DNA from: Devosia pacifica
GTDB lineage: Bacteria; Pseudomonadota; Alphaproteobacteria; Rhizobiales; Devosiaceae
Length of the DNA stretch: 64,000 nucleotides
NCBI RefSeq assembly: GCF_014652635.1
Contig: NZ_BMZE01000001.1
Location: 487,293-551,292 of the forward strand
Reading direction: 5' to 3'
Shown here: positions 43,810 through 62,519 of the stretch, in pieces
Layout of the letters: each line of letters begins with the position of its first letter
Position numbering within the stretch: position 1 is the stretch's first letter
Translations under genes and position numbers: made by a program
Notes under the pieces: model-generated
Seen by the model: only the letters and a program-made list of their open reading frames with translations
Databases searched by the model: none
Told to the model about the DNA's origin: nothing

Positions 43810-44448
43810 TCAGGCGGCTTTGTCGGAGCGAGAAGAAAACGCCGCAATAATCTCTTCTGCAGAGCGCCGTGCTCCGGCCTGCAGATATTCCATCGCGTTG
43901 AGGGCTGCATCGTGCGCGGTGCGGCTTGACCCGGAAACGCAATCTTCCACCACGCGGCAGTAATAGTCGCCCTGGTGGGCATCAACGAAGCTGTAGTGGA
44001 TGCAGACATCGGTGAAGCCGCCAACCAGGATCAGCGTTTCCGCCTTGAGGCCACGCAGCAAGATCTCGAGGTCCGTGCCGTAAAAGACGGAGTAGCGGCG
44101 CTTTGTAATCTTGTAGTCATCCGGCCGCATCTCCAGTTCCTCATACGGAAAGTCCGTGCCGGGAGAACTCTCGAGGCAGTGGACGCTCTCCATACCGTCA
44201 AGTTCGCGACCGAAATCGATCATGTCGTTACGGTGTTCCTCCTTGACGAACACGATCGGGATGTCCGCATCGCGGGCAGCATCAATCACGGTCTTGGCGC
44301 GCCACATACGCTCGATACCGTCGGACATGAATTCAAGCCGGGACGTGTCGGGGCGTGTCATGAAGCCGCCCTTTTGGATATCGACCGAAATCACCACCGG
44401 ACGCCCGACAATCATCGGCTTTGCAGTAACGGGATTGCTGTCGTTCAT
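43810..44448 (-). CDS. isochorismatase-like cysteine hydrolase (copy 1)
   Basis: The start at 44448 (MNDSNPVTAKPMIVGRPVVISVDIQKGGF) has AAAGGAG in front. The 212-residue enzyme shows the family triad: Asp in VISVDIQ, Lys in ITKRRYSVFYGTDLE, Cys in GGFTDVCIHYSFVDAHQ. The family includes biuret hydrolase and guanylurea hydrolase, which split ureido amides. It closely resembles copy 2 at 49590 (KRRYSxFxGTDLEILLRGL, VVEDCVxGSS, AALNxMEYLQxGARR). It is the first of three leftward genes: hydrolase, MATE, GntR. Confidence 0.9.
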   Translation of the reverse strand: MNDSNPVTAKPMIVGRPVVISVDIQKGGFMTRPDTSRLEFMSDGIERMWRAKTVIDAARDADIPIVFVKEEHRNDMIDFGRELDGMESVHCLESSPGTDFPYEELEMRPDDYKITKRRYSVFYGTDLEILLRGLKAETLILVGGFTDVCIHYSFVDAHQGDYYCRVVEDCVSGSSRTAHDAALNAMEYLQAGARRSAEEIIAAFSSRSDKAA

Positions 44449-44512
44449 CACGAACTCCTTTTGACGGGTTTCGCAATGAGATGGGCTCGATACTGAGCAC
44501 GGGAAAATAGCG

Positions 44513-44544
44513 TTGCGCGCAATCATACTTGCGCCACAGCGCAA
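44513..44544. promoter_or_regulatory. paired TTGCGC dyads upstream of cysteine hydrolase 1
   Basis: The palindrome TTGCGCGCAA (44513-44522) and the dyad TTGCGC-N4-GCGCAA (44529-44544) lie back to back in the 96-bp gap between the LysR gene and the hydrolase gene. They could be operators of the local regulators. No promoter pair is clear. Confidence 0.4.
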
Positions 44545-45525
44545 CTATGCGACGTTCTGGCTATTCTGGGCAATTTCCATCAACAGCCGGGCCATTGCCG
44601 GAGGCTGGTCGGCTTTTATTGCAAGTTCCATGCGGGCGCGGGCGCGAAACAGGCGAGGCATGACAGGCACGGCACCCGCAAGCGCCGGAGTCGTGTCGAC
44701 ATAGTGGTCCGGCAGGAAGCCGATATAGCGTCCGCTTGCCACCAGTACAGCCAGTGCCTCCACATGATCCACACTGGCTGTCCGTTTGAGGAACTGCGTG
44801 TATTTCGTGCGCGGGCCGCCCTGTGCCGAGGTAAACCCGGCGTAGTCATACTCACTGAGTTGCTCTGGCGCCTCGACCCCTGCCGCTAGCGGGTGCGTGT
44901 GGGCGCAGTAGAGGTTGCTTGCCTCTTCGTAGAGCGTGTAGCGCGTCAGATGCCGGGACTGCCTTTGCCGCGCTGCAACAATCCCCGCATCAAAGCGCCC
45001 CTCGGTCACACCCTGTTCGACATCGAGCACACGCGCGATAGAGATCTCAATATCGAGGCTCGGCACTTGCCCCTTGATGCGATCGATGAGAGCCGGCACG
45101 GCGCCTGAGGGGTGACCCAGGACACAATCCACCATGCCCAGCCGCAAGCGACCGCTCATCGCTTGGTGCAGGTGCCGCATCTCCCTCTCGAAGCGATCGA
45201 GATCACCAAGCAGCCGCCCGCCCATCTCGAGTACCTGCAAGCCAGCGTCGGTGAGCATGAAGCCGCGGCGGCCGCGCGTGCAGAGACGGCTGTCCAGCCG
45301 GGCTTCAAGGCCGGACACCGCACGGCTAATTGCCGGCATGCTCATCTGCAGTTCGCTTTGCGCTGCCGAAAAGCCCCCTGCTTCCGCCACTGCGCAGAAG
45401 ATACGGATAAGTCGGATATCCGCTTCCCCCAGCCGAAAACCCAGGAAGCGTTTCGAATAGCCCAATTGAGACAACACCGCCTCCGCCCATCCACCGCATG
45501 CAACATTGTATGCAACGCCGCACAA
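44545..45525 (-). CDS. LysR-type regulator
   Basis: The 326-residue product has the LysR N-terminal HTH (EADIRLIRIFCAVAEAGGFSAAQSELQMSMPAISRAVSGLEARLDSRLC), then the effector-binding domain (SGRLRLGMVDCVLGHPSGAVPALIDRIKGQVPSLDIEISI, LVASGRYIGFLPDHYVD). The start is uncertain; the HTH begins only ~33 residues in, so a downstream start is possible. It diverges from the pot operon and is likely its regulator or that of the co-directional hydrolase. The inducer is unknown. Confidence 0.88.
   Translation of the reverse strand: MCGVAYNVACGGWAEAVLSQLGYSKRFLGFRLGEADIRLIRIFCAVAEAGGFSAAQSELQMSMPAISRAVSGLEARLDSRLCTRGRRGFMLTDAGLQVLEMGGRLLGDLDRFEREMRHLHQAMSGRLRLGMVDCVLGHPSGAVPALIDRIKGQVPSLDIEISIARVLDVEQGVTEGRFDAGIVAARQRQSRHLTRYTLYEEASNLYCAHTHPLAAGVEAPEQLSEYDYAGFTSAQGGPRTKYTQFLKRTASVDHVEALAVLVASGRYIGFLPDHYVDTTPALAGAVPVMPRLFRARARMELAIKADQPPAMARLLMEIAQNSQNVA
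45506..45515. promoter_or_regulatory. TTGTATGCAA palindrome-like box (FCD-GntR site candidate)
   Basis: TTGTATGCAA fits the TTG-N4-CAA pattern of FCD-GntR operators. The same ten bases, inverted, occur before the MBL gene at 55872-55881. It lies between the LysR gene and the pot operon, upstream of the sigma-54 promoter. Confidence 0.5.
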
Positions 45526-45560
45526 ATGGTGGTATTTATGCCTAAGTTTTAGTCATAGAT

Positions 45561-45584
45561 GCCGATGCTCATGAAAGCATCGGC
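45561..45584. promoter_or_regulatory. 9-bp hairpin upstream of sigma-54 promoter
   Basis: GCCGATGCT (45561-45569) pairs with AGCATCGGC (45576-45584), loop CATGAA. It is in the non-coding region between LysR and the transporter operon, about 50 bp before the -24/-12 promoter, so it may be a protein-binding dyad (activator site) rather than a terminator. Confidence 0.4.
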
Positions 45585-45629
45585 GATCCGTCCCGCTGAT
45601 TTTGTGGATAGTTTCGCTCGAAAGCAAGT

Positions 45630-45645
45630 TGGCACGCATGTTGCA
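45630..45645 (+). promoter_or_regulatory. sigma-54 (RpoN) promoter of the pot/cgd operon
   Basis: TGGCACGCATGTTGCA matches the -24/-12 consensus TGGCAC-N5-TTGCA exactly, with GG and GC separated by 10 bases. It would start transcription near 45656, about 35 bp before the TTG start of the binding-protein gene. It implies control by RpoN with an enhancer-binding protein such as NtrC. Confidence 0.85.
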
Positions 45646-45690
45646 ACCGCCTTGACGGGAGCCCTGACATCCGTTGCAAGGAGAACACCG

Positions 45691-46806
45691 TTGCCCTCCA
45701 AGATCCTCTTTCCCAATTCCCGGCCCCGCTCCGGTCAAAACCTGTCTCGCCGTTCTGTGCTTAAGGGCATGGGTAGCGCCGCCCTCGTCGGCAGCGTCAG
45801 CATGCCATTCATCAGCCGTGCCGCGGCACAAACGCCCCTGCGGATTTCGAACTTCGGCGGCTTTTTCGAGCAGGCGTTCGCCGAACACGTCTACCCGGCT
45901 TTCACCGAAGCAACGGGCATACCGGTCCAATCCATTCCGCAATCCGGGGGCGCGCAGTTCCTGATCCAGCTGGCACAGGCCAACCAGGCCGGCGCAGCCC
46001 CAATGGATATTTGCTGTGCTGGCCAGGCGGAAGTCATCCGCGGCCGTGCCCAGAACCTTTGGGCAAGTGTCGACGAAGCCAGCCTGCCCAACCTGTCCAA
46101 CCTGATGACACCCTATGTCTATCGTAGCGATGAAGGCGTGGATGGTGTCGGCGCGATGGGATGGTACATGACCTTCCTCGCCAACCCCAACGAGTTCGAA
46201 ACGCTGCCGACAAGCTGGAAAGAGCTGTGGGGCGACCACCCCGGCGCCTGGGGCATCAATAGCGGCGGCACCTCGCCGATCCTCGACATCACAGCCGCGA
46301 CCTATTTCGACGGCGCATCGACCCTCGACACCGAAGAAGGCTGCGCTGAAGTTCTCGCCAAGATCGGAGAGCTAAAGCCAAACACGCGACTGTGGTGGAG
46401 CGATGAAGGCTCGATGCAGAGCGCCTACCAGAACGAGGAAGTCATCGGCGGCACCTATTATCATGACGTCGCGATGATCATGAAGAGTGAAGGCACTCCA
46501 ATCGAGTCGATCTTCCCGGAGGAAGGCGCGGTCCAAGGATACAACGCATGGTGCATTCCGTCCTCCAATGAGGTGACTGACTCGATGATCGAGTTCCTCA
46601 ACTGGAGCGCGACCCCGGAAGCGCACGAGCTAATCGCACGCCACGTGTCAGCCGCACCGTTGATCGATCGCTCGCAGCTCGATCTGACGGATGAAGAGTT
46701 CGCAGCAGTGTCCTCGCAGTCCGAGCCGATCCTGATCGCTTCGGAGGCCAAGGTGAAGAACGCCGATTTCCTCGCGCAGGAATTCATCCGCATCCTGTCG
46801 TCGTGA
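45691..46806 (+). CDS. ABC transporter substrate-binding protein, PotD-like
   Basis: The TTG at 45691 follows AAGGAG and is preferred over in-frame ATGs further up, which would lie upstream of the sigma-54 promoter. The 371-residue product has a Tat-type signal (LSRRSVLKGMGSAALVGSVSMPFISRAAAQ) and the family body (LRISNFGGFFEQAFAEHVYPAFTEATGIPV, GINSGGTSPI, AWCIPSSNEVTDSMIEFLNW). PotD-like proteins bind polyamines and other cations. Here a guanidino or ureido compound is plausible from the neighbours. Confidence 0.9.
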   Translation: MPSKILFPNSRPRSGQNLSRRSVLKGMGSAALVGSVSMPFISRAAAQTPLRISNFGGFFEQAFAEHVYPAFTEATGIPVQSIPQSGGAQFLIQLAQANQAGAAPMDICCAGQAEVIRGRAQNLWASVDEASLPNLSNLMTPYVYRSDEGVDGVGAMGWYMTFLANPNEFETLPTSWKELWGDHPGAWGINSGGTSPILDITAATYFDGASTLDTEEGCAEVLAKIGELKPNTRLWWSDEGSMQSAYQNEEVIGGTYYHDVAMIMKSEGTPIESIFPEEGAVQGYNAWCIPSSNEVTDSMIEFLNWSATPEAHELIARHVSAAPLIDRSQLDLTDEEFAAVSSQSEPILIASEAKVKNADFLAQEFIRILSS

Positions 46807-46813
46807 GGTCAAG

Positions 46814-47857
46814 ATGATCGGACTGGAAGTCGCAAATCTCAGCAAATCGTTCGGTGCCGGCAAGGTGGTCGACGATGTCTCGCTCAGCATCGAGGACGGC
46901 AAGTTCGTCTGTTTTCTCGGTCCATCAGGCTGCGGCAAGACCACACTCCTGCGCATGATCGCCGGGCTGGAGCAGCCGACCTCCGGTTCGATCATCCTCA
47001 ATGGTCGTGACATTACCGGAACGCCGACCCATGCGCGCAATTTCGGCATGGTGTTCCAGGCACTGGCGCTGTTTCCGCATCTCAACGTGGGCCAGAACAT
47101 CGGCTACAGCCTGCGCCTGAGGAACATGGAGCAGAAATTCCGCCGCGAGCGTGTGTCGGAACTGCTCGACCTCGTCGCCCTTCCGGGCGTCGAGGATCGC
47201 AGCGTCAATCAGCTGTCGGGCGGCCAGCGTCAGCGTGTGGCGATTGCCCGCGCGCTGGCACAGGAGCCGCGCCTGTTCCTGATGGATGAGCCCCTGTCCG
47301 CCCTCGACGCGAAACTGCGCGACCATATGCAGGTCGAACTTCGCCAACTTCAGCAGAAACTCAAGATCACGACGGTGTTCGTCACGCACGACCAGCGCGA
47401 GGCGATGACCATTGCCGATACGATCGTCGTCATGTCCGAAGGCAAGGTGCAGCAGGTCGGCTCCCCCGTCGATATCTACCGGCGTCCAGCCAACAAATTC
47501 GTCGCCAACTTCATAGGTCAGTCCAACCTGATCGATGTCGAGCAGGTCGCACCAGGCACGGTCCGCTTTGGCGAGACGACCTTCCCAGTTGCATCGAATG
47601 AGAACCAGCTCGAGGGAACGACACTGTGCGTGCGTCCCGAGGATGTCATCCTCACGGCTCCGGGCGACAGCGCTTCCGGTCTGATTGGCGATGTCTCGTT
47701 CGTGCGCGATGTCGGCTCGAGCGTCGAGGTCTGGCTCCAGTGCAATGGCCGGGAAATTCTCGCCACCGCCAGCCCTGCCCGTTGGGCCGAGATTTCAGGC
47801 AATGAGCGCCTTGGCATCGATTTCAGCGCCAATTCGGCCACCCTACTCGCAAGCTAG
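46814..47857 (+). CDS. potA-like: ABC transporter ATP-binding protein, PotA-like
   Basis: This 347-residue ATPase has Walker A GPSGCGKTTLLRMI, Q-loop, signature LSGGQRQRVAIARAL, Walker B LFLMDEPLSALD, the H-loop histidine in FVTHDQREAMTIAD, and a C-terminal TOBE domain (NLIDVEQVAPGTV, LCVRPEDVILTAPG). It energises the Pot-like transporter. It lies 7 bp after the binding-protein gene. Confidence 0.95.
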   Translation: MIGLEVANLSKSFGAGKVVDDVSLSIEDGKFVCFLGPSGCGKTTLLRMIAGLEQPTSGSIILNGRDITGTPTHARNFGMVFQALALFPHLNVGQNIGYSLRLRNMEQKFRRERVSELLDLVALPGVEDRSVNQLSGGQRQRVAIARALAQEPRLFLMDEPLSALDAKLRDHMQVELRQLQQKLKITTVFVTHDQREAMTIADTIVVMSEGKVQQVGSPVDIYRRPANKFVANFIGQSNLIDVEQVAPGTVRFGETTFPVASNENQLEGTTLCVRPEDVILTAPGDSASGLIGDVSFVRDVGSSVEVWLQCNGREILATASPARWAEISGNERLGIDFSANSATLLAS

Positions 47858-47866
47858 GAAGCCCAT

Positions 47867-48763
47867 ATGGCAACCATAAGTGAAATGCGCCCCAGCGGCC
47901 TGAATATCCGCGGGCTGAAAAATGTCCCCGGCGGGCTCTCGCAGCTGCCACTGATCTGGCCGGCGCTCATGATCCTGGGGTTCTTTGCGATCCCGCTATT
48001 TTTCCTGTTCCGGGTAAGCCTCGCAAACCGGGACCCGGCCGTATATCAGGGCACCGGGTTCAGCCTTCAGGCGTTCACGCAACTCGGCCAGCCGATGGTG
48101 CTCAACGCGGTGAGCTTTTCGGTGATGCTGTCGCTGATCGTTGCCAGCATCAGCATGCTGGTCACCTTTCCAGCGACCTACTTCATCACCCGCCTCAGCC
48201 GACGTGCCCAAGTGGCCTGGCTGATCGGGTTTTTAAGCACGCTTGCGCTATCCGAGGTGCTGATAACCTTCTCCTGGCAGATCCTGCTTTCGAAAAAGGC
48301 GGGCATGTCCAACGTGTTGGTAATGCTGGGCATCCTCGATGAGTCGATGTCGCTCGCACCGAGCTTCGGCGGTGTCGTCGCCTGCATCATCTATCTCGTC
48401 ATACCGTTCAATTTCATGACGCTTTATCCAGGCCTTTCGCGCCTCGATACGTCTTATCTCGAGGCGGCTCGCACTCTTGGCGCTCGCCCGACCCGGGCGT
48501 TCTTCGAGATCCTGCTGCCGTTGATGCGCAAGCCCATCGCCACGGCGTTCCTGACCACGGTGATCATGACGATCGGCGCCTATGTCGCCCCTATCGTGCT
48601 CGGAGGCCCGGCGAACTGGACCATTGGCGTCGTCATCAGCGAGGTGGCGATAACGGGACAGAACCTGCCGCTCGCCTCGGCCATAGCAATCCTGTTGATG
48701 CTAGTCACTGCAATGCTGGTTCTCGGCATCAACCGCATCGGCGGAAAGGGGTACGTATCATGA
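47867..48763 (+). CDS. ABC transporter permease 1, PotB-like
   Basis: The 298-residue membrane protein has six predicted helices and the EAA motif (YLEAARTLGARPTRAFFEILLPLMRKPIATAF) in the cytoplasmic loop that docks the ATPase. It overlaps the second permease by 4 bp (ATGA). Confidence 0.93.
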   Translation: MATISEMRPSGLNIRGLKNVPGGLSQLPLIWPALMILGFFAIPLFFLFRVSLANRDPAVYQGTGFSLQAFTQLGQPMVLNAVSFSVMLSLIVASISMLVTFPATYFITRLSRRAQVAWLIGFLSTLALSEVLITFSWQILLSKKAGMSNVLVMLGILDESMSLAPSFGGVVACIIYLVIPFNFMTLYPGLSRLDTSYLEAARTLGARPTRAFFEILLPLMRKPIATAFLTTVIMTIGAYVAPIVLGGPANWTIGVVISEVAITGQNLPLASAIAILLMLVTAMLVLGINRIGGKGYVS

Positions 48764-49563
48764 TGACCGATAAAGCCGCCTGGCTCGCCCGGTTCGTCTT
48801 CCTGACCCTCGTTGCGATATTTCTCGCCATGCCGTTGATCGTGGTGTCCAGCGTCAGCTTCAACGACACGGCGCAGATGGTCTTCCCGCCGCAAGGCCTG
48901 AGCCTTCGCTGGTACGAGGAGTTCTTCAATGATCCGACATGGGTCGGTGCATTCGAACGCTCGGTCATAATTGCGCTTTCGGCTTCCGTGCTGTCCACCA
49001 GTCTTGCGCTGCCGATCGCCTACGCACAATGGAAGCACCGCTCGAAGGTCGCGGATGCGCTGGCCGCACTCGGCGGCCTGCCGTTCATCCTGCCGCCAGT
49101 GGTGATTGCTATCGTCTTTCTGCTGTTCTGGGGCATTGTCCAGCACGTCGGACGGATCGAAAACATCATCGTCAGCCATGCCATCACCTTCGTTGCGATG
49201 CCGCTTGTGATGATCACGCTGGGCTTCGCCTCGGTCGAGCAGACGCTGGTGGAAGCCGCGGAAACCATGGGCGCGCGGGAGGACCAGGTGTTCCGTTCCA
49301 TCGCCTTGCCGATTGTGCTGCCGTTCATCATCGCGAGCCTGATCTTTGTGACGATCTTTTCGCTCAATGAGTACCTCATCGCCTACATGGTGGGCGGCTT
49401 CGCGACCCAAACTCTGCCGGTCAAGATATTCTCCAGCATGCGAACAGGCTTCACCCCCACCATGTGCGTGGCTGCGGTGCTGTTCCTCACGCTTGGTCTT
49501 GCCGGTTTCCTCGCAATCGCGCGCCTCGGCAATCTGCCTAAGCTGATGGGCGCCAAAGGCTAA
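48760..49563 (+). CDS. ABC transporter permease 2, PotC-like
   Basis: The 267-residue protein has the PotC layout: first helix FVFLTLVAIFLAMPLIVVSSVSF and the EAA loop LVEAAETMGAREDQVFRSIALPIVLPFIIASLIF. With PotB it would form the channel. It is the last transporter gene, 26 bp before the hydrolase. Confidence 0.93.
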   Translation: MMTDKAAWLARFVFLTLVAIFLAMPLIVVSSVSFNDTAQMVFPPQGLSLRWYEEFFNDPTWVGAFERSVIIALSASVLSTSLALPIAYAQWKHRSKVADALAALGGLPFILPPVVIAIVFLLFWGIVQHVGRIENIIVSHAITFVAMPLVMITLGFASVEQTLVEAAETMGAREDQVFRSIALPIVLPFIIASLIFVTIFSLNEYLIAYMVGGFATQTLPVKIFSSMRTGFTPTMCVAAVLFLTLGLAGFLAIARLGNLPKLMGAKG

Positions 49564-49589
49564 TCCCTCACACGAACAAGAGTAGTTCC

Positions 49590-50222
49590 ATGCAGAAAAA
49601 ACAGATCCCCCTCATCGTTGATCAGCCCGTCCTGATCGTCGTCGACATCCAAAAATCCGGTATCGGCGATGTCAGCACGGCAATCCCGATCATGCCGGGC
49701 GCCGACGAGAACACCTATCGCGCGCGCTCCGTGATCGATGCCGCGCGTGAAAACGACATTCCGATCGTCTTCTTGCAGGAAATCCACCGCAAGTCCGGCG
49801 TCGACTATGGCCGTGAGATGGACGGCGACGAGGACGAGCACCTGCGCGAAGACTGGCCGGAAACCGAGATCGCTGCCGATGTCGTTGGCCTGCGTGAGGA
49901 CGACTATGTCGTACAAAAGCGCCGCTACTCGGGCTTCATCGGCACGGACCTCGAGATCCTCCTGCGCGGGCTTCGCGCTCAGACCCTGTTCCTCGTCGGC
50001 GGGCTGACGAACATCTGCGTTCACTACACTTTCGCCGACGCTCACCAGAAAGACTTCCATGTCCGCGTGGTCGAGGACTGCGTGTGCGGCTCCAGTATCG
50101 ATGCGCACAATGCCGCTTTGAACAACATGGAGTATCTCCAGCACGGTGCGCGGCGTACAGCGGCCGAGATCATCGACGCCTTCAACACCTACGGCGCATC
50201 AGCAAAATCCAAGGTGGCGTGA
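49590..50222 (+). CDS. isochorismatase-like cysteine hydrolase (copy 2)
   Basis: This 210-residue enzyme has the triad Asp (VLIVVDIQKSG), Lys (VQKRRYSGFIGTDLE) and Cys (VGGLTNICVHYTFADAH). It is strongly related to copy 1. In known pathways cysteine hydrolases of this family convert biuret to allophanate or guanylurea to guanidine; both products feed enzymes present in this locus. Substrate is inferred, not shown. It is coupled to the M20 gene by a GTGA overlap. Confidence 0.9.
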   Translation: MQKKQIPLIVDQPVLIVVDIQKSGIGDVSTAIPIMPGADENTYRARSVIDAARENDIPIVFLQEIHRKSGVDYGREMDGDEDEHLREDWPETEIAADVVGLREDDYVVQKRRYSGFIGTDLEILLRGLRAQTLFLVGGLTNICVHYTFADAHQKDFHVRVVEDCVCGSSIDAHNAALNNMEYLQHGARRTAAEIIDAFNTYGASAKSKVA

Positions 50223-51616
50223 TCGTGGCCGCCAGCAACACCGAAACCGCGACGCGCGCCATCTGGCAACGCTATCGCGCTCGCATCGAAGAGCTGTTCG
50301 CCGAAATGTGGGCCGAGCCTGAAATGCCGGCGATGGAGTACGCATCGATGGCGCGCCTCGCGGAGTTTCTCGAACGCAACGGGTTCGCGGTCGAGCGTGG
50401 TGCCGGCGGCGTCCCCACCGCCTTCAAGGCGCGCAGCGGAAACGGCAAAGGGCCACGCATCGGCATTCTGGCTGAGTACGATGCCCTGCCCTCGCTGGAC
50501 AATGAGGCGGTTCCTTATCGCAAGGGATCAGGTCGCAAGCCAGGCCACGGATGCGGCCACAACCATATCGGCCCCGCCAATACAGGGGCCGGCATCGCTG
50601 CCGCTGCCGCATTGGCTGAACTCGGCCTCGATGGCGAGATCATCGTGGTCGGCTGCCCGGCGGAAGAAATCGGCTGGGGAAAGCTGGCGCTGCAGGATGC
50701 CGGCGTGTTCGACGAACTCGACGTCATTCTGACCTCGCACGGTGACTACCAGAACGGTTCGCTGGCGCGTCCCTGCCACGGTGTCGCTTCGGGTGAGTTT
50801 CGATTCACTGGCGACAGCGCTCATGGCGGTATGGGCACCACCCGCAACGCCCTTGCAGCCGCAGAAGCCGCGATCGCCGCATTCGAAGCAAAGCGGTCCG
50901 AGGCCGACCCGGACTTGCAATTCAAACACATCTTCCGCGTCGCCGGAGTTGCCCCCGGCGTGATGCCGGAAGAAGTTCGCGTCTGGTGCTCGGTGCGCCA
51001 TCTCGACTTCGATCGGCTGACCGCTGGCTATGACCTGATGCATGAGACGTTCGAGGAGATCGCGGAGGTCGAAAATGTCGGCTTCTCCGCGCACCTGATC
51101 AATATGTGCAGGGGCTATCTGGGCAATGACACAATCGGCCATGTGCTGGCCGAAGCACTTGAAGTCATCGGCCCGCCGGCATGGAGCGAGGACGATATCG
51201 CATTCATGACCGAGCTCAGCGCGAACAGCGCACCGGGCACCGAATTCGACCTGCATCGGGAGCTCGATTACTTCGATACCGGCGTCGACTATTATGGCCA
51301 GGACGATGGCGATGTGAGCTGGGCGATCCCGCTTGGTCGCGTCAACTGGGCGTACCCCAAGAACGTGCCGATCCACCATTGGGCGTGGACAGCGCTGTCC
51401 GGGCATTCGGCCAGCACTCCCGGCCCGATGATGGCTTCGGAAGCGCTGGCGCTCGGTGCCGTGGCTCTGGCTCAGCAACCCGAACTGATCGACGGTGCAA
51501 AGGCCGAACTGGCGCGGCGGACAGAGGGCCAGACGATTGCTCCACCCCGTTACGGCGCGCGCGCGATACTGACGACCGACCCCGCTGCATTCTGGGATGC
51601 GAGTTGGACTGCCTAG
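50219..51616 (+). CDS. M20-family amidohydrolase (AbgB-like)
   Basis: The start is GTG at 50219, overlapping the hydrolase stop (GTG at 50225 is another option); the longer frame is the hydrolase's antisense. The 465 residues have M20 features: GILAEYDALPSLDNE (metal-bridging Asp and helix), PGHGCGHNHIGPANTGAGIAAAAAL, the VVGCPAEEIGWGKL catalytic Glu pair, and THGDYQN/ASGEFRFTGDSAHGG His of the dimerisation domain. It resembles aminobenzoyl-glutamate amidohydrolase B. It probably cleaves an amide of an imported guanidino- or ureido-acid. Confidence 0.85.
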   Translation: MIVAASNTETATRAIWQRYRARIEELFAEMWAEPEMPAMEYASMARLAEFLERNGFAVERGAGGVPTAFKARSGNGKGPRIGILAEYDALPSLDNEAVPYRKGSGRKPGHGCGHNHIGPANTGAGIAAAAALAELGLDGEIIVVGCPAEEIGWGKLALQDAGVFDELDVILTSHGDYQNGSLARPCHGVASGEFRFTGDSAHGGMGTTRNALAAAEAAIAAFEAKRSEADPDLQFKHIFRVAGVAPGVMPEEVRVWCSVRHLDFDRLTAGYDLMHETFEEIAEVENVGFSAHLINMCRGYLGNDTIGHVLAEALEVIGPPAWSEDDIAFMTELSANSAPGTEFDLHRELDYFDTGVDYYGQDDGDVSWAIPLGRVNWAYPKNVPIHHWAWTALSGHSASTPGPMMASEALALGAVALAQQPELIDGAKAELARRTEGQTIAPPRYGARAILTTDPAAFWDASWTA

Positions 51617-51625: not shown

Positions 51626-52450
51626 ATGAGTAAGATGGATACGCAAACGCTGATCGCGAAGAACCGTGAACGCTACGAAGCGCTAAAGGCGGCCGGAACA
51701 GACCAGTCACCCAAGGCAATGCCGCAACCCACTGCGCTGGGCGAGGCGCGGATCAACGATGATGACGTGATATTCGCCGAGACCATTCCCGGTGGCTGGT
51801 ATGCAAACTACCGCCTCAAAACCGGCGAACGGTTGCGCCTCGAGAATACCGAGGGCACTGCCGCTGCAGCCCTTCTCGCCTGGAACGCCGCCGATACATC
51901 TGAGCGGCTGAACCACGCCGACAGCATCAAGGTGCAATGGACCTCAAAGCTGGCAAAGGGCCGGGTGGTATTCTCCGATATGGGTCGGGTTCTGCTCTCG
52001 ATTGTCGAGGATAGCTCAGGAGCGCACGATGTGCTGGCGGGCGGTCTTAATAAGGCCGGCGTCGCAGCGAAATATGGCGATGACCCCGATCTGCGGAACA
52101 CACGAACAAACATGATCCTGGCCGCTGCCAAGTTTGGCCTCGATCCGCGCGATATTCCGCCGCTGCTGACATTCTTCGCGCCGGTCTCTGTCGCCGAAGG
52201 CGGAGAACTGAGCTGGCGCGACGGTATCCGCAAGCCAGGCGACTTCATCGAAGTGCGCGCCGAAATGGATTTGCTGGTTGCCGTCTCGAATTGCCCGCAT
52301 CCGCTCGACCCGTCGCCGGACTATGCGCCGGGCCCACTTGGCGTAACGGTCCTCAAAGCCAAGGACATCGAGGCCGAGGACTTCTGCCGCACCGCGACGC
52401 CCGAAGCCGTTCGCGGATTCGAAAACACCGACACCTACCGGAACATGTGA
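51626..52450 (+). CDS. cgdA: carboxyguanidine deiminase subunit (DUF1989, UAAP1)
   Basis: This 274-residue DUF1989 protein starts MDTQTLIAKNRERYEALKAAG and has the FAETIPGGWYANYRLKTGERLRLENTEGTAAAALLAWNAADTSERLNHADSIKVQWTSK core and the DLLVAVSNCPHPLDP strand. This family was long called urea carboxylase-associated protein 1; the pair of such proteins was shown to form carboxyguanidine deiminase, turning carboxyguanidine to allophanate. Which subunit is A or B by the published naming is uncertain. It lacks the cysteine cluster present in the partner gene. Confidence 0.88.
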   Translation: MSKMDTQTLIAKNRERYEALKAAGTDQSPKAMPQPTALGEARINDDDVIFAETIPGGWYANYRLKTGERLRLENTEGTAAAALLAWNAADTSERLNHADSIKVQWTSKLAKGRVVFSDMGRVLLSIVEDSSGAHDVLAGGLNKAGVAAKYGDDPDLRNTRTNMILAAAKFGLDPRDIPPLLTFFAPVSVAEGGELSWRDGIRKPGDFIEVRAEMDLLVAVSNCPHPLDPSPDYAPGPLGVTVLKAKDIEAEDFCRTATPEAVRGFENTDTYRNM

Positions 52451-55881: not shown

Positions 55882-56011
55882 CAACTCAATTTCAAGCCGA
55901 TTTATGATTTACTTTTCATCTGAGCCTAAAAAGTAATCATTCTGCCAGCCAGATGCGCACCACCCTTCTCGAGCACCTTCCCGAGTGTCGATCACAAGGG
56001 GTTTTTGCCTC

Positions 56012-56027
56012 TGGCACGTGTCTTGCA
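56012..56027 (+). promoter_or_regulatory. sigma-54 promoter of the guanidine operon
   Basis: TGGCACGTGTCTTGCA matches TGGCAC-N5-TTGCA exactly. Its expected start site is near 56038-56040, directly in front of the riboswitch aptamer. It is the second perfect sigma-54 promoter of this locus. Confidence 0.85.
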
Positions 56028-56044
56028 GCATTGGGTGCACGAGT

Positions 56045-56146
56045 TCGCGGCTAGGGTTCCGGCGCCATCGGCGTGACTGGTCCGAGAGCTGCCACCATAC
56101 GGGAGACATCCGTACGGTCGCACGGCGGGACAAAAGCCCGGGAGAC
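56045..56146 (+). promoter_or_regulatory. guanidine-I (ykkC) riboswitch aptamer
   Basis: The 5' leader holds the conserved strings of the ykkC class in order: CTAGGGTTCCGG (56051-56062), GGTCCGAGAGCT (56079-56090) and, after the ACGGCGG lead, GGGACAAAAGCCCGGGAGA (56128-56146). These form the guanidinium pocket of the guanidine-I class. It controls the operon for the guanidine transporter and carboxylase. Confidence is high from motif identity and gene context; an exact P1 boundary was not drawn. Confidence 0.95.
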
Positions 56147-56158
56147 CTCTGTGGCCAA

Positions 56159-56216
56159 GGGATTGGCGGCACGATGGTCGTCACCAATCCCAATGAAACA
56201 TAAGGTGAGGGATTGG
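56159..56216 (+). promoter_or_regulatory. two-state expression platform sequestering the ribosome site
   Basis: GGGATTGG occurs at 56159-56166 and again at 56209-56216, the latter overlapping the end of the AAGGTGAGG ribosome site and lying next to the ATG at 56218. A single CCAATCCC (56184-56191) lies between them, 17 bases from each copy, and can pair with either. Pairing with the first frees the ribosome site; with the second hides it. This looks like a translational ON/OFF switch driven by the aptamer. Confidence 0.75.
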
Positions 56217-56217
56217 C

Positions 56218-57282: not shown

Positions 57283-57294
57283 AACCACGCGCTT

Positions 57295-57316
57295 TGGGGC
57301 GCTTTGAAGCGCCCCA
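57295..57316. promoter_or_regulatory. hairpin between binding protein and permease genes
   Basis: TGGGGCGCT (57295-57303) pairs with AGCGCCCCA (57308-57316), loop TTGA. A 9-bp GC-rich stem in the 62-bp intergenic gap is typical of mRNA stabilisers that keep binding-protein mRNA more abundant than permease mRNA. No T-run is present. Confidence 0.5.
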
Positions 57317-57344
57317 CTCTTCCCACAAGCTCAGGTGGTCCTTC

Positions 57345-58160
57345 ATGCGCTGGATCAACGCAACGCCCACGCGAAGCGCTCGGCTGGCCCTTGCCTTGGT
57401 GCCGTTTGTCCTCGTGCTCGTCGTCTATGCCATGGGCTCGGCGGCGCGCCTCGCAGACAATCCAAGCGACAAATTGCTGCCTGGCCTCGCTGCATTCGCC
57501 CAAGCCATCGAGCGCATGGCGTTCATGCCGGACCAGCGAACCGGTGAACTGCTGCTGGTGAGCGATACCATCGCCAGCCTGACGAGACTTGGCGCCGGCC
57601 TTGCGATCGCTACCGCCATCGCCCTTGCGACCGGCATGGTCCTCGGCATGTTTCCTTACGTTCGCAGCCTGTTAGGCTCGTTTGTTGCGGTAATCTCTAT
57701 GGTGCCGCCGCTGGCGCTGTTACCGATTCTCTTCATTCTCATGGGGCTTGGTGAAGCCGCGAAGATTGCGCTTATTGCCATCGGCGTGACACCGATCTTG
57801 ATCCGTGACCTCGCCTTCAAGGTCACGGACCTGCCGCATGAGCAGCTGGTAAAGGCGCAAACCCTGAGCGCCTCATCCTGGCAGATCGGCATGCGCGTGG
57901 TGCTGCCGCAGGTTCTGCCGCGGCTTCTCACAAGCCTGAAGCTGCAGCTTGGCCCCGCCTGGCTGTTCCTCATTGCCGCCGAAGCCATCTCGTCGGATTC
58001 GGGGCTCGGCTATCGCATCTTTCTCGTCAGGCGATATCTGTCGATGGACATCATCTTTCCCTACGTCGCCTGGATCACGCTGCTGGCGGTGATCATGAAC
58101 CTGCTGCTTGATTGGCTGCGCTGGGGTGCGTTCCCCTGGGCGCGCGGGAGCGCAGGATGA
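57345..58160 (+). CDS. ABC transporter permease (TauC/SsuC-type)
   Basis: The start at 57345 (MRWINATPTRSARLALALVPFVLVLVVY) gives 271 residues with about six helices. The cytoplasmic motif is LPHEQLVKAQTLSASSWQIGMRVVLPQVLPRLLTSLKLQLGPAWLFLIAAEAI, which is the EAA region. It overlaps the ATPase gene by ATGA. Confidence 0.92.
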   Translation: MRWINATPTRSARLALALVPFVLVLVVYAMGSAARLADNPSDKLLPGLAAFAQAIERMAFMPDQRTGELLLVSDTIASLTRLGAGLAIATAIALATGMVLGMFPYVRSLLGSFVAVISMVPPLALLPILFILMGLGEAAKIALIAIGVTPILIRDLAFKVTDLPHEQLVKAQTLSASSWQIGMRVVLPQVLPRLLTSLKLQLGPAWLFLIAAEAISSDSGLGYRIFLVRRYLSMDIIFPYVAWITLLAVIMNLLLDWLRWGAFPWARGSAG

Positions 58161-58984
58161 GCGAGATCGTCATTTCCGATGTCTGGAAGGAGTACGACGA
58201 GCAGATCGTACTGGAGCAGATATCCCTCACCATCGCGCCGCGCGCCTTCGTAGCGCTTGTCGGCCCCTCCGGCTGTGGCAAGAGCACCTTCTTGCGCATG
58301 CTGCTCGGCGACGAACGTCCGACGCGCGGCACCATCACCCTCGATGGTCATCCATTGCCATCAGAGCCCGGGCCAGATCGGGGCGTGGTGTTTCAAAAGT
58401 ACTCGGTGTTTCCGCACCTGACGGTGCTCGGCAATGTGCTCTTGGGCCTCGAACTGCAAGGCTCATCAGTGCGGATATGCCTGCGCGGTGAGGCACGCCG
58501 GCGCGCCATCGACACGGCGCGCGAAATGATTGCCGAAGTCGGCCTCGCCGGAAGCGAAACCAAGTACCCCGCGCAGCTTTCAGGCGGCATGCAGCAAAGG
58601 CTGGCGCTGGCCCAGGCGCTTGTCATGCGACCCAAGGTCCTGCTGCTGGATGAGCCCTTCGGCGCACTCGATCCTGGCATACGCGCCGACATTCACGTGC
58701 TGATGCGCCGGCTATGGCATGAAACTGCGCTCACCGTCGTGATGGTGACGCATGACATGCGCGAAGCCTTCACCCTCGCCAACCGTGTCATCGCGTTCGA
58801 ACGGCCGCGCGACCGGCCCGAAGAGCGCGAGCGCTACGGAGCGCGGCTTAGCCAGGACATTTCCATCTGGCCAGCCCGCCTCGCTGGTGAACCAGATCCC
58901 TACAGCCCGGATCGGGACGGCCCGATCCTTTCCGAGGCTTTCAGCCGGGACGACCTGGCACTCGAGACTGTGCCCGGAGACTAA
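58157..58984 (+). CDS. ABC transporter ATP-binding protein (TauB/SsuB-type)
   Basis: The 275-residue ATPase has Walker A GPSGCGKSTFLRML, signature LSGGMQQRLALAQAL, Walker B VLLLDEPFGALD and the H-loop MVTHDMREA. It energises guanidine uptake. The start at 58157 follows the ATGA overlap. Confidence 0.94.
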   Translation: MSEIVISDVWKEYDEQIVLEQISLTIAPRAFVALVGPSGCGKSTFLRMLLGDERPTRGTITLDGHPLPSEPGPDRGVVFQKYSVFPHLTVLGNVLLGLELQGSSVRICLRGEARRRAIDTAREMIAEVGLAGSETKYPAQLSGGMQQRLALAQALVMRPKVLLLDEPFGALDPGIRADIHVLMRRLWHETALTVVMVTHDMREAFTLANRVIAFERPRDRPEERERYGARLSQDISIWPARLAGEPDPYSPDRDGPILSEAFSRDDLALETVPGD

Positions 58985-58985
58985 G

Positions 58986-61900
58986 ATGTTCAAAAAGGTT
59001 CTCGTCGCAAACCGTGGCGAAATCGCCGTGCGTGTCATCAGAACGCTGCAGCGGCTCGGGATCGGCGCCGTGGCCGTCTATTCGGATGCGGACCGCTTCA
59101 CGCCCGCTGTCAGACTGGCGGACGAAGCCATTCGGCTCGGCCCCGCGCCCGCAACCGAGAGCTATCTCGATGTCGAGACGGTCATCGCCGCCTGTAAAAG
59201 CAGCGGTGCCGAAGCTGTCCACCCCGGCTACGGGTTTCTGTCCGAGAACGCACACTTTGCCCGTCGTTTGTCCGAGGAAGGCATCGCCTTCATCGGACCA
59301 CGCCCGGAACATCTAGAAACCTTCGGGCTGAAGCACACCGCGCGCGCACTGGCGCAGGAAGCCGGTGTGCCGCTCTTGCCGGGCACCGATCTGCTGGATA
59401 GCGCAGAGGCCGCGCTCGAGGGCGCACAAAGCATAGGCTACCCGGTCATGCTCAAAAGCACCGCCGGCGGCGGCGGCATCGGCATGCAGCTGTGCCATGA
59501 CGCGGACACGTTGCGTCAACGCTTCGAGTCCGTGCAGCGCACCGCCAGCGCCAGCTTTGGCGATGCCCGTGTTTATCTCGAGCGGTTCGTTGCAAAAGCC
59601 AGGCACGTGGAAGTGCAACTGTTCGGTGACGGCAAGGGCCATGTCATCGCTCTTGGCGAACGCGATTGCTCCCTGCAGCGGCGCAACCAGAAAGTCGTCG
59701 AGGAAACCCCTGCCCCCGGCCTGTCGTCAGAGGTTCGCGCGCGCATGCACCAGGCCGCGATCGATCTCGGCGCCACGGCGCAATATGAATCCGCCGGCAC
59801 TGTCGAGTTCATTTACGACCCGCAACGCGAAGAGTTCTACTTCCTCGAGGTCAATACCCGGCTGCAGGTCGAACACCCGGTCACCGAGGCTGTCTTCGGG
59901 ATAGACCTTGTGGAATGGATGGTTCGGCAGGCCGCCGGCGAACCAGTTCTTCAAAATGCAGGAAACCTGGAGCCAAGCGGCCACGCCATCGAAGTGCGCC
60001 TTTATGCTGAAAAGCCGAATTCCGGCTTCCAGCCCAGTGCCGGTCGGCTGACCGAAGTGCGTTTTTCCGATACCGCCCGCATCGACGGATGGATCGAGAC
60101 CGGCGCCGACGTCACCCCCTATTATGACCCGATGCTGGCCAAGATCATCGTCACCGGCGCGGACAGGCCCGCTGCGCTGAAAGCTTTACGCCAAGCGCTC
60201 GATGATACTGAGATCGCCGGCATCGAGACCAATCTCGATTATCTACGCGCCATCGCCCGGTCCAATCTTCTCGTCTCTGGCGATGTCGCGACGACGGCGC
60301 TCGACCAGTTCGAGTTCACCTCTGACAGCATCGACATCCTGATCCCAGGCGCCCAATCGAGCGTTCAGGAGCTGCCGGGACGCATTGGCCTGTGGCATGT
60401 CGGCGTACCACCCAGTGGCCCGATGGACGAGCGGTCTTTCCGCCACGCCAATCGCCTCGTTGGCAACGCCGATGGCACCGCCGCACTCGAGCTGACGGTC
60501 TCCGGCCCAAAACTTCTGTTTCATGCCCTCGCCCGCGTGGCTCTGGCCGGCGCAAGCATGCCGGCACGGCTCGACGGCACCCTCATGCCGCACGGCCAAC
60601 CCTTCGAAGTCGAGGCCGGCTCAGTTCTGGAAGTCGGCTCCGTCGAAGGCCCCGGCCAACGCTCCTATCTCGCCATTGAAGGCGGCATCAAGGCTCCGGA
60701 AATCCTCGGCTCTCGCGCCACGTTTGCACTCGGCGCCTTTGGCGGCCATGCCACCGGAACTCTCAAGGCCGGCGAGACCCTGCACTTCGCCAGGGCCACG
60801 CAGACGGGACCGAAGCCGCCGGAAGCCCCCGCCGAATTGACCAACCATTGGCAGGTCTCAGTGGTCTACGGACCGCACGGCGCCCCCGACTTCTTCCAGG
60901 AGGCGGATATCGATGATTTGTTCTCGGCGGAATACGAGGTGCATTACAACAGCGCCCGCACCGGCGTTCGGCTCCTCGGGCCGACACCGCGCTGGGCCCG
61001 CGACGACGGCGGCGAGGCTGGCCTTCACCCCTCGAATCTTCACGACAATGCCTACGCTGTCGGGGCCATCGACTTCACCGGCGACATGCCGATCATTCTC
61101 GGCCCTGATGGCCCGAGCCTGGGCGGATTCGTCTGCCCCGCCGTGATCGCGCGTTCCGAGCAGTGGAAAATGGGCCAGTTCAAGCCCGGCGACACGATCC
61201 GCTTCGTGCCCGCCGCGCGCCCGGACGATCCGATCCCGACACCTGAAGTCCACCGCCCCGGTCCCGATATCGGTTCCGCCATTGTTGGTCTCGGCGACTC
61301 TGGACCGGTCCCGGTGGTCTATCGCCGCCAGGGCGACGACAATTTGCTGGTCGAATACGGTGCGATGACCCTCAACGTCGCCCTAAGGCTACGCGTCCAC
61401 CTGTTGATGCAGGCGCTACGCGAAGCCAACCCGCCCGGCCTGATCGATCTGACCCCCGGCATCCGCTCGCTCCAGATCCACTATGACGGGACAGCGCTCA
61501 CCCGCCAGCGCCTCCTTGGTCTCTTGGCTGAGATCGAAAGCTCCTTGCCTCCCGCAGAGGAGGTCAAGGTCCCAAGCCGCATTCTGCATTTACCGCTGTC
61601 CTGGAACGACGTCGACGCGCAGCTCGCCATGCGCAAATATCAGGAACTCGTCCGCCCCAACGCACCCTGGTGCCCGGACAATATCGAGTTCATCCGCCGC
61701 ATTAACGGCCTGCCCGATATCGATGCCGTGAAATCGATCATCTTTGATGCCAGCTACCTGGTGATGGGCCTCGGCGATGTGTATCTCGGCGCGCCGGTGG
61801 CAACGCCGATCGACCCGCGGCATCGGCTAGTCACCACCAAATACAACCCGGCCCGCACCTGGACGCCGGAGAACGCCGTCGGCATCGGCGGCGCCTATAT

Positions 61901-62519
61901 GTGCATTTACGGTATGGAGGGTCCCGGCGGCTACCAGCTGTTCGGACGCACGATTCAAGTCTGGAACACCTGGCGCTCGACGCCCTATTTCCCGCAGGAA
62001 AAACCGTGGCTGCTCGACTTCTTCGACCAGATCCGGTTCTTCCCGGTCTCACACGATGAGCTGACGGAAGCGCGCGCCAGTTTTCCCTATGGCGATTATC
62101 CCATGCGCATCGAAGAAACCAGATTTGATTACGCTGAATATGCGCAGTTTCATCGGCGAGAAGCTGAGTCTATTTCCGCCTTCAAGCAGACCCAGCAGGC
62201 AGCGTTCGAGGCTGAGCGGCAGCGCTGGAAGGATGAGGGCCTCGACAGCTTTACCTCAAGCGAACCTCTGGCTGCTGAGGCAGAGTTAGAGGTCCCCGCT
62301 GGCTGCATAGGACTGACAAGCACGGTGCCTGGCAGCGTGTGGAAAGTTCTGGTGGAAGACGGCGCTGCGGTTGCCGCCGGCGAAACTGTCGCAATCATCG
62401 AGTCGATGAAGATGGAGTTCACCGTCGTTGCCACCGAGGCCGGGAGGGTTCGCTCGATCCGGGCCAGACCGGGTAGCGCCGTGCGTGGCGGTGACCTTAT
62501 AGCGGTACTTGAGCCTTAA
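58986..62519 (+). CDS. uca: guanidine carboxylase (urea carboxylase family)
   Basis: The 1177-residue biotin enzyme starts MFKKVLVANRGEIAVRVIRTL one base after the ATPase stop. Residues 1-450: biotin carboxylase with HPGYGFLSENAHFAR, KSTAGGGGIGMQ, ERDCSLQRRNQKVVEE and FLEVNTRLQVEHPVTEAV. Residues ~470-1090: KipI/KipA-like carboxyltransferase (LPGRIGLWHVGVPPSGPMDERSFRHANRLVGN; GPSLGGFVCPAVI; PWCPDNIEFIRRINGLPDIDAVKSI). Residues ~1105-1177: biotinyl domain with ESMKMEF (K1142). It makes carboxyguanidine from guanidine, bicarbonate and ATP; the riboswitch and the deiminase genes favour guanidine over urea. The deciding carboxyltransferase residue was not aligned. Confidence 0.95.
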   Translation: MFKKVLVANRGEIAVRVIRTLQRLGIGAVAVYSDADRFTPAVRLADEAIRLGPAPATESYLDVETVIAACKSSGAEAVHPGYGFLSENAHFARRLSEEGIAFIGPRPEHLETFGLKHTARALAQEAGVPLLPGTDLLDSAEAALEGAQSIGYPVMLKSTAGGGGIGMQLCHDADTLRQRFESVQRTASASFGDARVYLERFVAKARHVEVQLFGDGKGHVIALGERDCSLQRRNQKVVEETPAPGLSSEVRARMHQAAIDLGATAQYESAGTVEFIYDPQREEFYFLEVNTRLQVEHPVTEAVFGIDLVEWMVRQAAGEPVLQNAGNLEPSGHAIEVRLYAEKPNSGFQPSAGRLTEVRFSDTARIDGWIETGADVTPYYDPMLAKIIVTGADRPAALKALRQALDDTEIAGIETNLDYLRAIARSNLLVSGDVATTALDQFEFTSDSIDILIPGAQSSVQELPGRIGLWHVGVPPSGPMDERSFRHANRLVGNADGTAALELTVSGPKLLFHALARVALAGASMPARLDGTLMPHGQPFEVEAGSVLEVGSVEGPGQRSYLAIEGGIKAPEILGSRATFALGAFGGHATGTLKAGETLHFARATQTGPKPPEAPAELTNHWQVSVVYGPHGAPDFFQEADIDDLFSAEYEVHYNSARTGVRLLGPTPRWARDDGGEAGLHPSNLHDNAYAVGAIDFTGDMPIILGPDGPSLGGFVCPAVIARSEQWKMGQFKPGDTIRFVPAARPDDPIPTPEVHRPGPDIGSAIVGLGDSGPVPVVYRRQGDDNLLVEYGAMTLNVALRLRVHLLMQALREANPPGLIDLTPGIRSLQIHYDGTALTRQRLLGLLAEIESSLPPAEEVKVPSRILHLPLSWNDVDAQLAMRKYQELVRPNAPWCPDNIEFIRRINGLPDIDAVKSIIFDASYLVMGLGDVYLGAPVATPIDPRHRLVTTKYNPARTWTPENAVGIGGAYMCIYGMEGPGGYQLFGRTIQVWNTWRSTPYFPQEKPWLLDFFDQIRFFPVSHDELTEARASFPYGDYPMRIEETRFDYAEYAQFHRREAESISAFKQTQQAAFEAERQRWKDEGLDSFTSSEPLAAEAELEVPAGCIGLTSTVPGSVWKVLVEDGAAVAAGETVAIIESMKMEFTVVATEAGRVRSIRARPGSAVRGGDLIAVLEP

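What the first reader, a model, noticed from the sequence alone, without database searches (positions are those of the whole stretch)
43810..62519. A guanidine/ureide catabolic superlocus with two transporters and paralogous cysteine hydrolases
Guanidine carboxylase, both carboxyguanidine deiminase subunits and allophanate hydrolase form a complete guanidine-to-ammonium route. Around it are two near-paralogous isochorismatase-like hydrolases (a family that contains biuret and guanylurea hydrolases), an M20 amidohydrolase, a PotDABC transporter, an MBL hydrolase and a MATE exporter. Together they suggest import of a larger guanidino or ureido compound that is trimmed to guanidine or allophanate. 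The substrate of the upstream half is unknown.
Basis: partly seen in the sequence, partly recalled or inferred. Interest (0 to 1): 0.85.

Follow-up and report, generated by a model that had tools for sequence, protein, structure and literature searches.

The report
Front-end module that frees guanidine
This bacterium carries genes for using guanidine as nitrogen, marked by two guanidine riboswitches, and beside them a transporter with predicted amide-cutting enzymes that is predicted to take up a larger, still unknown guanidine-containing compound and likely cut it down to guanidine, which would make the unsettled natural source of guanidine testable.

Summary
In detail: guanidine carboxylase, CgdA, CgdB, AtzF, two ABC transporters, two 57%-identical isochorismatase-type hydrolases (ICH1, ICH2), an M20 hydrolase, an MBL hydrolase and a MATE exporter are where stated. 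The guanidine part is a known pathway with its signature residues. The new part is the PotDABC-ICH-M20 front end. Related ICH/PotDABC modules lie next to either of two unrelated guanidine routes (carboxylase or Ni-guanidinase); 27 of 34 searched genomes with an unlinked module-group ICH still carry one route, against 1 of 15 genomes with a sister ICH clade. Marine versions carry homologues of the methylguanidine enzymes MgdH and MgdL. In two same-genus genomes CgdAB-AtzF follow a Dpp/MBL importer operon; here they follow PotDABC-ICH2-M20. So the module most likely imports a guanidine conjugate and releases guanidine. Its substrate is unknown; by sequence the hydrolases are neither biuret hydrolases nor close to the guanylurea hydrolase compared. 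New variant of a known kind.

The parts
42392..43942 (-). MATE exporter (true start likely inside, near 43801)
   Evidence: TIGR00797 169 bits, cut-off 147; recurs beside ICH1 in relatives
43810..44448 (-). ICH1, isochorismatase-type cysteine hydrolase
   Evidence: PF00857 120.8 bits; 57% identical to ICH2
44545..45525 (-). LysR regulator; homologue (35-39%) near ICH1-type genes in Caulobacter/Acetobacter relatives
45691..46806 (+). PotD-like substrate-binding protein; twin-arginine-like signal by eye
   Evidence: best solved relatives, weakly, spermidine/putrescine and mannopine binding proteins
46814..47857 (+). PotA-like ATPase
47867..48763 (+). PotB-like permease
48760..49563 (+). PotC-like permease
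49590..50222 (+). ICH2, isochorismatase-type cysteine hydrolase
   Evidence: PF00857 125.2 bits; family alignment A1
50225..51616 (+). M20 amidohydrolase; closest solved relative by sequence Xaa-Arg dipeptidase
51626..52450 (+). CgdA, carboxyguanidine deiminase subunit
   Evidence: TIGR03425 283 bits
52461..53093 (+). CgdB, carboxyguanidine deiminase subunit
   Evidence: TIGR03424 332 bits
53090..54907 (+). AtzF, allophanate hydrolase
   Evidence: TIGR02713 781 bits
54947..55843 (-). MBL-fold hydrolase
   Evidence: PF00753; 67% relative beside the guanidine importer in G810
56040..56146 (+). guanidine-I riboswitch aptamer
   Evidence: RF00442 78.2 bits
56218..57282 (+). guanidine-type substrate-binding protein
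   Evidence: TIGR03427 536.5 bits
57294..58160 (+). NitT/TauT-type permease
58157..58984 (+). NitT/TauT-type ATPase; codons near its 3' end are the guanidine-II aptamer
58909..58958 (+). guanidine-II riboswitch aptamer, inside the ATPase coding sequence
   Evidence: RF01068 40.5 bits; same position in same-genus genomes
58986..62519 (+). guanidine carboxylase
   Evidence: TIGR02712 1799 bits; Asp at both signature positions

Best explanation
The window carries a riboswitch-marked guanidine import and carboxylation operon whose deiminase and allophanate-hydrolase genes lie in a predicted second operon behind genes of a PotDABC-type transporter, an isochorismatase-type hydrolase and an M20 hydrolase, and this front end is predicted to import a larger guanidine-containing compound and likely to cut it to free guanidine. 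Shown by sequence: the genes, both riboswitches, the guanidine-carboxylase signature residues, and the recurrence of ICH/PotDABC modules with guanidine-degrading genes in other genomes. Inferred: ICH2, ICH1 and M20 would hydrolyse amide- or ureide-type bonds of an imported N-substituted guanidine; the guanidine set free would bind the guanidine-I and guanidine-II riboswitches, raise the carboxylase operon, and be turned by carboxylase, CgdAB and AtzF into carbon dioxide and three ammonia. MBL may open a further bond and MATE may expel excess cation; both are guesses from neighbourhood. The front end was most likely acquired horizontally and set in front of the genus's own CgdAB-AtzF genes.
For: (1) 19 of 54 non-control ICH loci hold carboxylase, CgdB, guanidine SBP or guanidinase (45% identity or more) in the fetched flank; 0 of 25 loci of a sister ICH clade do (Fisher p=3.8e-4). 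(2) Of the 35 module-group loci without such a neighbour, 34 genomes could be searched whole: 15 have CgdB over cut-off, 12 have a guanidinase relative (E<=1e-80), none has both over those limits, 7 have neither; of 15 of the 25 control genomes 0 have CgdB over cut-off and 1 has guanidinase (Fisher 2e-6). Rate in 230 alphaproteobacteria, the window's own included: 8 CgdB and 8 guanidinase, no overlap. (3) The route differs while the module stays: six loci have guanidinase and no AtzF in the flank; the guanidinase of L026 is closest to solved 7oi1/7esr and 9fek. Hence the shared product is most likely guanidine. (4) A 2-oxoglutarate dioxygenase is in 26 of 79 loci and an MgdL-like protein with a D-x-R motif follows ICH in many; in L115 the same two families stand between carboxylase and AtzF, as published for mgdH/mgdL (PMC12508155 passages). 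(5) In same-genus G814 and G878 CgdA-CgdB-AtzF follow a Dpp-type importer operon with an MBL gene (guanidine-I before it in G814); the window's CgdA/CgdB/AtzF are closest to these (70-72/84-90/73-74%) but follow PotDABC-ICH2-M20. ICH family in 0 of 48 other same-genus genomes searched.
Against: No riboswitch precedes PotD or ICH in the window or in the 19 relatives with ICH among 21 loci scanned. ICH active-site residues are equally conserved in the sister clade without guanidine link, so the ICH reaction need not be guanidine-specific. 7 of 34 unlinked genomes have neither route (L011, L012, L030, L059, L065, L066, L071; two are isolates). Two guanidinase genomes, L036 and L076, do have an AtzF-like stretch (47%) in the locus. 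L029, weakly grouped with the control clade in the tree (93/71), carries PotD and dioxygenase and was counted with the module group. Loci are related, and control loci are shorter on average (13.9 against 17.9 kb). No substrate, activity or expression has been tested. The window genome shows no MgdL-like protein.
Confidence: 0.62

Rival explanations
1. The front end imports and hydrolyses a ureido compound (biuret-like) to allophanate, and shares only AtzF with the guanidine route.
For: AtzF follows ICH2-M20 directly in MAG contig L012 and lies on the same strand after them here; L036 and L076 hold an AtzF-like stretch; ICH belongs to the superfamily of biuret hydrolase.
Against: Six relatives keep the module with guanidinase and no AtzF in the flank; BiuH model 54 and 45 bits against 370.
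Confidence: 0.13
2. The two halves are only neighbours: a polyamine or opine/amide scavenging module placed next to other nitrogen-scavenging genes, with no shared intermediate.
For: PotD-like SBP weakly resembles polyamine and mannopine binders; the sister ICH clade is unlinked to guanidine and an ICH relative stands beside amino-acid-type ABC genes in L122.
Against: Repeated linkage in different gene orders and with two unrelated guanidine routes, and strong co-occurrence when unlinked; position before CgdAB-AtzF in this genome.
Confidence: 0.17
3. The front end detoxifies or exports guanidino compounds (MATE, MBL) and nitrogen gain is incidental.
For: MATE beside ICH1; MepA/MATE proteins are linked to guanidine-IV riboswitches (PMC12186494 passages).
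Against: A PotDABC-type importer with a substrate-binding protein, followed by ammonia-releasing enzymes, points to uptake and use.
Confidence: 0.06

Closest known systems
Guanidine carboxylase pathway operon with guanidine-I and guanidine-II riboswitches (Raoultella, Klebsiella, Vreelandella)
   Same: Importer, carboxylase, CgdAB, AtzF, guanidine-I before the importer and guanidine-II before the carboxylase (PMC12186494 and PMC12508155 passages)
   Different: CgdAB-AtzF stand behind PotDABC-ICH2-M20; guanidine-II lies in the ATPase coding sequence, not in an intergenic region as stated for V. boliviensis
MgdH/MgdL methylguanidine extension of the operon (V. boliviensis, PMC12508155)
   Same: A guanidine operon extended by enzymes that make guanidine from a substituted guanidine; homologues of both accompany the marine PotDABC-ICH module
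   Different: No MgdL-like protein found in the window genome; ICH and M20 hydrolases and a separate importer instead
Guanylurea hydrolase GuuH (P. mendocina GU and MET)
   Same: Isochorismatase-like hydrolase feeding guanidine to carboxylase-CgdAB-AtzF (PMC9800807 passages)
   Different: ICH1/ICH2 29%/27% identical to the enzyme of strain MET (that of strain GU was not compared); different importer type; substrate unknown
Ni-guanidinase GdmH operon
   Same: Alternative guanidine sink beside the module in marine relatives
   Different: Not found in the window genome at E<=1e-80

Membership tests
Guanidine carboxylase pathway | Asp at K. lactis positions 1330 and 1584 of the carboxylase (criterion in PMC11410670 passage) | tested here: met
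   Window Asp696 aligns with Asn1330 and Asp931 with Asp1584 of 5i8i (positions counted on the printed alignment)
Guanidine carboxylase pathway | CgdA, CgdB and AtzF | tested here: met
   TIGR03425, TIGR03424, TIGR02713 over cut-off
Guanidine carboxylase pathway | Growth on guanidine as nitrogen source | not testable with these tools
   needs culture
Guanidine-I riboswitch | RF00442 over gathering score | tested here: met
   78.2 against 63
Guanidine-II riboswitch | RF01068 over gathering score, two hairpins | tested here: met
   40.5 against 32
Guanidine-II riboswitch | Covariation of the two hairpins in relatives | tested here: inconclusive
   14 sequences: changes on both sides in 3 of 14 pairs, 85.7% of cells paired; but the number of such pairs was reached by 79 of 500 shuffles and the +2 slide scores higher on covariation (0.127 against 0.113)
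Guanylurea hydrolase GuuH | Close sequence relation to an assayed GuuH | tested here: not met
   29% and 27% to GuuH of strain MET; GuuH of strain GU not compared
Guanylurea hydrolase GuuH | Activity on guanylurea | not testable with these tools
   needs assay
Biuret hydrolase BiuH | NF050097 curated cut-off | tested here: not met
   54.0 (ICH1) and 44.8 (ICH2) against 370
Ureidoacrylate amidohydrolase RutB | TIGR03614 curated cut-off | tested here: not met
   48.4 and 52.0 against 378
PotD polyamine-binding protein | NF007048 curated cut-off | tested here: not met
   26.3 against 582
MgdH/MgdL methylguanidine route | MgdL-like protein in the genome | tested here: not met
   G000 without match at E<=1e-5
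MATE family efflux | TIGR00797 curated cut-off | tested here: met
   169 against 147

The most novel reading that the evidence does not exclude
PotDABC-ICH is a mobile guanidine-liberating front end that many alphaproteobacteria plug into whichever guanidine sink they own (carboxylase or Ni-guanidinase), so a conjugated guanidine compound taken up from the environment, not free guanidine, is a main natural source of the guanidine that guanidine riboswitches sense.
Probability: 0.4. Interest if true: 0.8.

Novelty: new variant of a known kind. Interest (0 to 1): 0.62.

Why it matters
A 2025 review calls the natural source of guanidine a major gap (PMC12186494, abstract passage). A recurring importer-plus-hydrolase set that travels with guanidine-degrading genes names genes whose substrate would answer part of it, and gives a ready assay: the neighbouring guanidine riboswitches would report guanidine set free. 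The guanidine-II aptamer inside the ATPase coding sequence, kept in related species whether CgdA or the carboxylase follows, is also a clean case for studying a riboswitch that is itself translated.

Tried and rejected
GuuH and BiuH identities for ICH1/ICH2: rejected on sequence. Allophanate as the shared product: disfavoured by guanidinase loci without AtzF in the flank. Genomic island at tRNA-Gly 41463-41536: the last 16-24 bases of the tRNA occur only once in the window and the neighbouring ORF 40174-41379 matches no Pfam family, so no island boundary is claimed. Proof that the marine proteins are MgdH/MgdL by the termini encoded in primers of PMC12508155: the script printed no such motif in the loci then held (V. 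boliviensis itself is not known to be among them); the assignment rests on operon order, pairing and the D-x-R motif. Co-occurrence in the random class sample alone is weak: ICH family in 10 of 385 alphaproteobacteria, guanidine SBP in 31 of 385, both in 3. Plasmid loci L121-L123 gave no guanidine genes; L120, a Rhizobium plasmid, has the whole GntR-MATE-ICH1/PotDABC-ICH2-M20-MBL set but no guanidine gene apart from a 30% ATPase match. Structure prediction was not run. Literature: guanidine with riboswitch and cysteine hydrolase, with riboswitch and isochorismatase, and with riboswitch, Rhizobium and allophanate hydrolase gave 0 papers each; carboxyguanidine deiminase/guanidine carboxylase/isochorismatase gave 2 papers holding all three, of which passages were read; the passages do not describe this module. 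Guanidine with riboswitch, MBL and ABC transporter gave 2 papers, seen as listing only. The library is open-access only and two papers tried, on guanylurea hydrolase and on guanidine use, are not held, so absence from print is not shown.

Full report
WHAT IS THERE. From left to right the locus reads GntR, MATE, ICH1 and LysR on the minus strand, then on the plus strand PotD, PotA, PotB, PotC, ICH2, M20, CgdA, CgdB and AtzF, then MBL on the minus strand, then on the plus strand a guanidine-I riboswitch, a guanidine-type substrate-binding protein, a permease, an ATPase, a guanidine-II riboswitch (inside the ATPase gene) and the carboxylase. The pathway assignment was tested: the carboxylase has Asp where K. 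lactis urea amidolyase has Asn1330, and Asp at 1584, the two residues required of a guanidine carboxylase in PMC11410670 (passages seen). CgdA, CgdB, AtzF and the binding protein exceed curated cut-offs.

THE HYDROLASES. ICH1 and ICH2 are 57% identical and belong to a distinct isochorismatase-type family with invariant stretches around the putative catalytic D19, K110 and C143 of ICH2 (triad roles recalled from the family; alignment). They fail the BiuH, RutB and nicotinamidase models and are 29% and 27% identical to the guanylurea hydrolase assayed from P. mendocina MET (enzyme described in PMC9800807, passages seen). M20 is nearest to solved Xaa-Arg dipeptidases (65.5 bits). The substrate cannot be read from homology.

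RELATIVES. One scan of genome contigs kept 79 distinct loci of the family, the best of 532. I blasted the window proteins against them and built a tree of 92 rows. PotDABC stands directly before an ICH mainly in three groups: Rhizobiaceae-type loci (with M20, and ICH1, MATE and MBL in most), Roseibium, and Rhodobacteraceae-type loci. PotD is present in 34 of 54 non-control loci and in 0 of 25 loci of a sister ICH clade, which serves as control; 11 of these 25 are labelled Paracoccaceae or Roseobacteraceae. L029 groups weakly with the control clade (93/71) but has PotD and a dioxygenase; I counted it with the module group. The 54 also include loci of uncertain position without PotD.

LINK TO GUANIDINE. 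In 19 of the 54 loci the fetched flank holds carboxylase, CgdB, guanidine SBP or guanidinase at 45% identity or more, against 0 of 25 controls (mean locus length 17.9 and 13.9 kb). For the 35 loci without such neighbours whole genomes were searched (34 held, L047 not): 15 have CgdB over cut-off, 12 have a guanidinase relative at E<=1e-80, none has both over those limits (L032 and L036 have guanidinase plus a below-cut-off CgdB relative), and 7 have neither. The guanidinase hit of L013's genome carries one in-frame stop and that of L032's genome is partial. Of 15 control genomes (15 of the 25, because of the 50-locus limit) none has CgdB over cut-off, two have below-cut-off relatives, and one has guanidinase. 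In 230 alphaproteobacteria, the window's own included, the rates are 8 and 8 with no genome in both. Of 19 unlinked, searched loci with PotD, 18 have one of the two routes.

WHY GUANIDINE AND NOT ALLOPHANATE. The six guanidinase-linked loci (L015, L021, L026, L028, L033, L052) have no AtzF in the fetched flank; their whole genomes were not searched for AtzF, and two unlinked guanidinase genomes, L036 and L076, do have an AtzF-like stretch (47%) in the locus. The intermediate shared by the carboxylase and guanidinase routes is guanidine itself. The L026 guanidinase is closest to solved 7oi1/7esr (548 bits) and 9fek (536 bits) and keeps the Thr, His and Trp that PMC11410670 requires, judged by eye on the alignment; the other guanidinases were not checked residue by residue.

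MARINE VERSIONS. 26 of 79 loci hold a 2-oxoglutarate dioxygenase and 24 MgdL-like proteins were aligned. The MgdL-like family is in 13 of 398 Pseudomonadota genomes sampled, several beside guanidine importer genes or a dioxygenase, and in L115 dioxygenase and MgdL-like genes stand between carboxylase and AtzF, the order published for V. boliviensis mgdH and mgdL (PMC12508155 passages). L027 holds M20 (62%), dioxygenase, PotDABC, ICH and the MgdL-like protein together, joining the two versions. L118, an unnamed alphaproteobacterial region from the class sample, shows carboxylase, PotCBAD, LysR, ICH, MBL, guanidine-I and guanidine SBP within 18 kb.

THE GENUS. The ICH family is in 0 of the 48 other same-genus genomes searched (the genus sample has 75 genomes), so the front end looks acquired. 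Guanidine-I is in 16 of 75 genus genomes, 15 over cut-off. Of 14 guanidine-SBP regions fetched, 12 read ATPase-CgdA-CgdB, followed by the carboxylase in 11 (in L166 the contig ends); in the other two, G814 and G878, the carboxylase follows the ATPase and CgdA-CgdB-AtzF lie after a Dpp-type importer operon with an MBL gene; in G814 that operon has its own guanidine-I. The window genome has a like Dpp/MBL locus about 21 kb beyond the window, with two guanidine-I riboswitches and two MBL-fold genes but no CgdAB-AtzF in the stretch read; here these follow PotDABC-ICH2-M20. The window's CgdA, CgdB and AtzF are closest to those of G814/G878 among the loci compared. I read this as a front-end swap onto a native back end.

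A RIBOSWITCH INSIDE A GENE. The guanidine-II aptamer lies wholly within the ATPase reading frame; one base separates the stop codon from the carboxylase start. In all 15 ATPases inspected (window plus 14 regions) the frame runs through the aptamer stretch, translated as a tail with two (R/Q)D(D/G)-type motifs; 14 of 15 show both loops by my pattern, L176 has a one-base variant. Rfam scores the aptamer over its gathering score in 6 of 7 such loci scanned (not L170). Across 14 sequences 85.7% of cells pair, against 47-49% when slid by one, and 3 of 14 pairs change on both sides; but 79 of 500 shuffles reach that number and the +2 slide has the higher covariation score (0.127 against 0.113), so covariation is not decisive. 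More distant ATPases have other tails, by eye. The predicted fold pairs the GGAG before the carboxylase start but is not unusually stable (z -1.18). PMC12508155 places the aptamer in an intergenic region in V. boliviensis; a library search on riboswitches within the coding sequence of an upstream gene gave 7 papers, seen as listing only.

LIMITS. No expression or activity is known; the loci are related to one another; the ICH active site is as conserved in the unlinked sister clade; no riboswitch precedes PotD or ICH in the window or in the 19 relatives with ICH among 21 loci scanned. The substrate and the order of the ICH, M20 and MBL steps remain open.

Noticed in passing
58909-58958: Guanidine-II aptamer is entirely inside the ATPase coding sequence and so would be translated; the same holds in 14 same-genus regions (one with a variant loop) whichever gene follows.
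   Followed up: yes
L140:2766-11182 (own genome, about 21 kb beyond the window end): Second guanidine locus: guanidine-I, an MBL-fold gene, Dpp-type importer, a second guanidine-I, SBP family 5 and another MBL gene related (30%) to the window's MBL.
   Followed up: partly
L017, L020, L041, L051, L054: Acetobacter/Caulobacter relatives hold ICH1-type genes with MFS, LysR and secretory-lipase-like genes (TonB receptor in the Acetobacteraceae pair); in the three Caulobacteraceae ICH1 is followed by CgdA-CgdB-AtzF.
   Followed up: partly
L021, L022, L040, L047, L048, L050: A second ureohydrolase (agmatinase model 209 bits, cut-off 174, tested on L021 only) stands near the marine PotDABC-ICH module.
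   Followed up: no
L122:10751-16552: On a Sulfitobacter pontiacus plasmid an ICH relative lies between ABC transporter genes and an ornithine cyclodeaminase gene.
   Followed up: no
40174-41536: tRNA-Gly(tcc) next to a 401-aa ORF without Pfam match that looks recombinase-like by eye; no second copy of the tRNA end in the window.
   Followed up: partly
L019:6062-13424: Pseudomonas syringae GR12-2 carries PotDABC-ICH with MATE and an M20 relative (30%); its genome also has CgdB.
   Followed up: no
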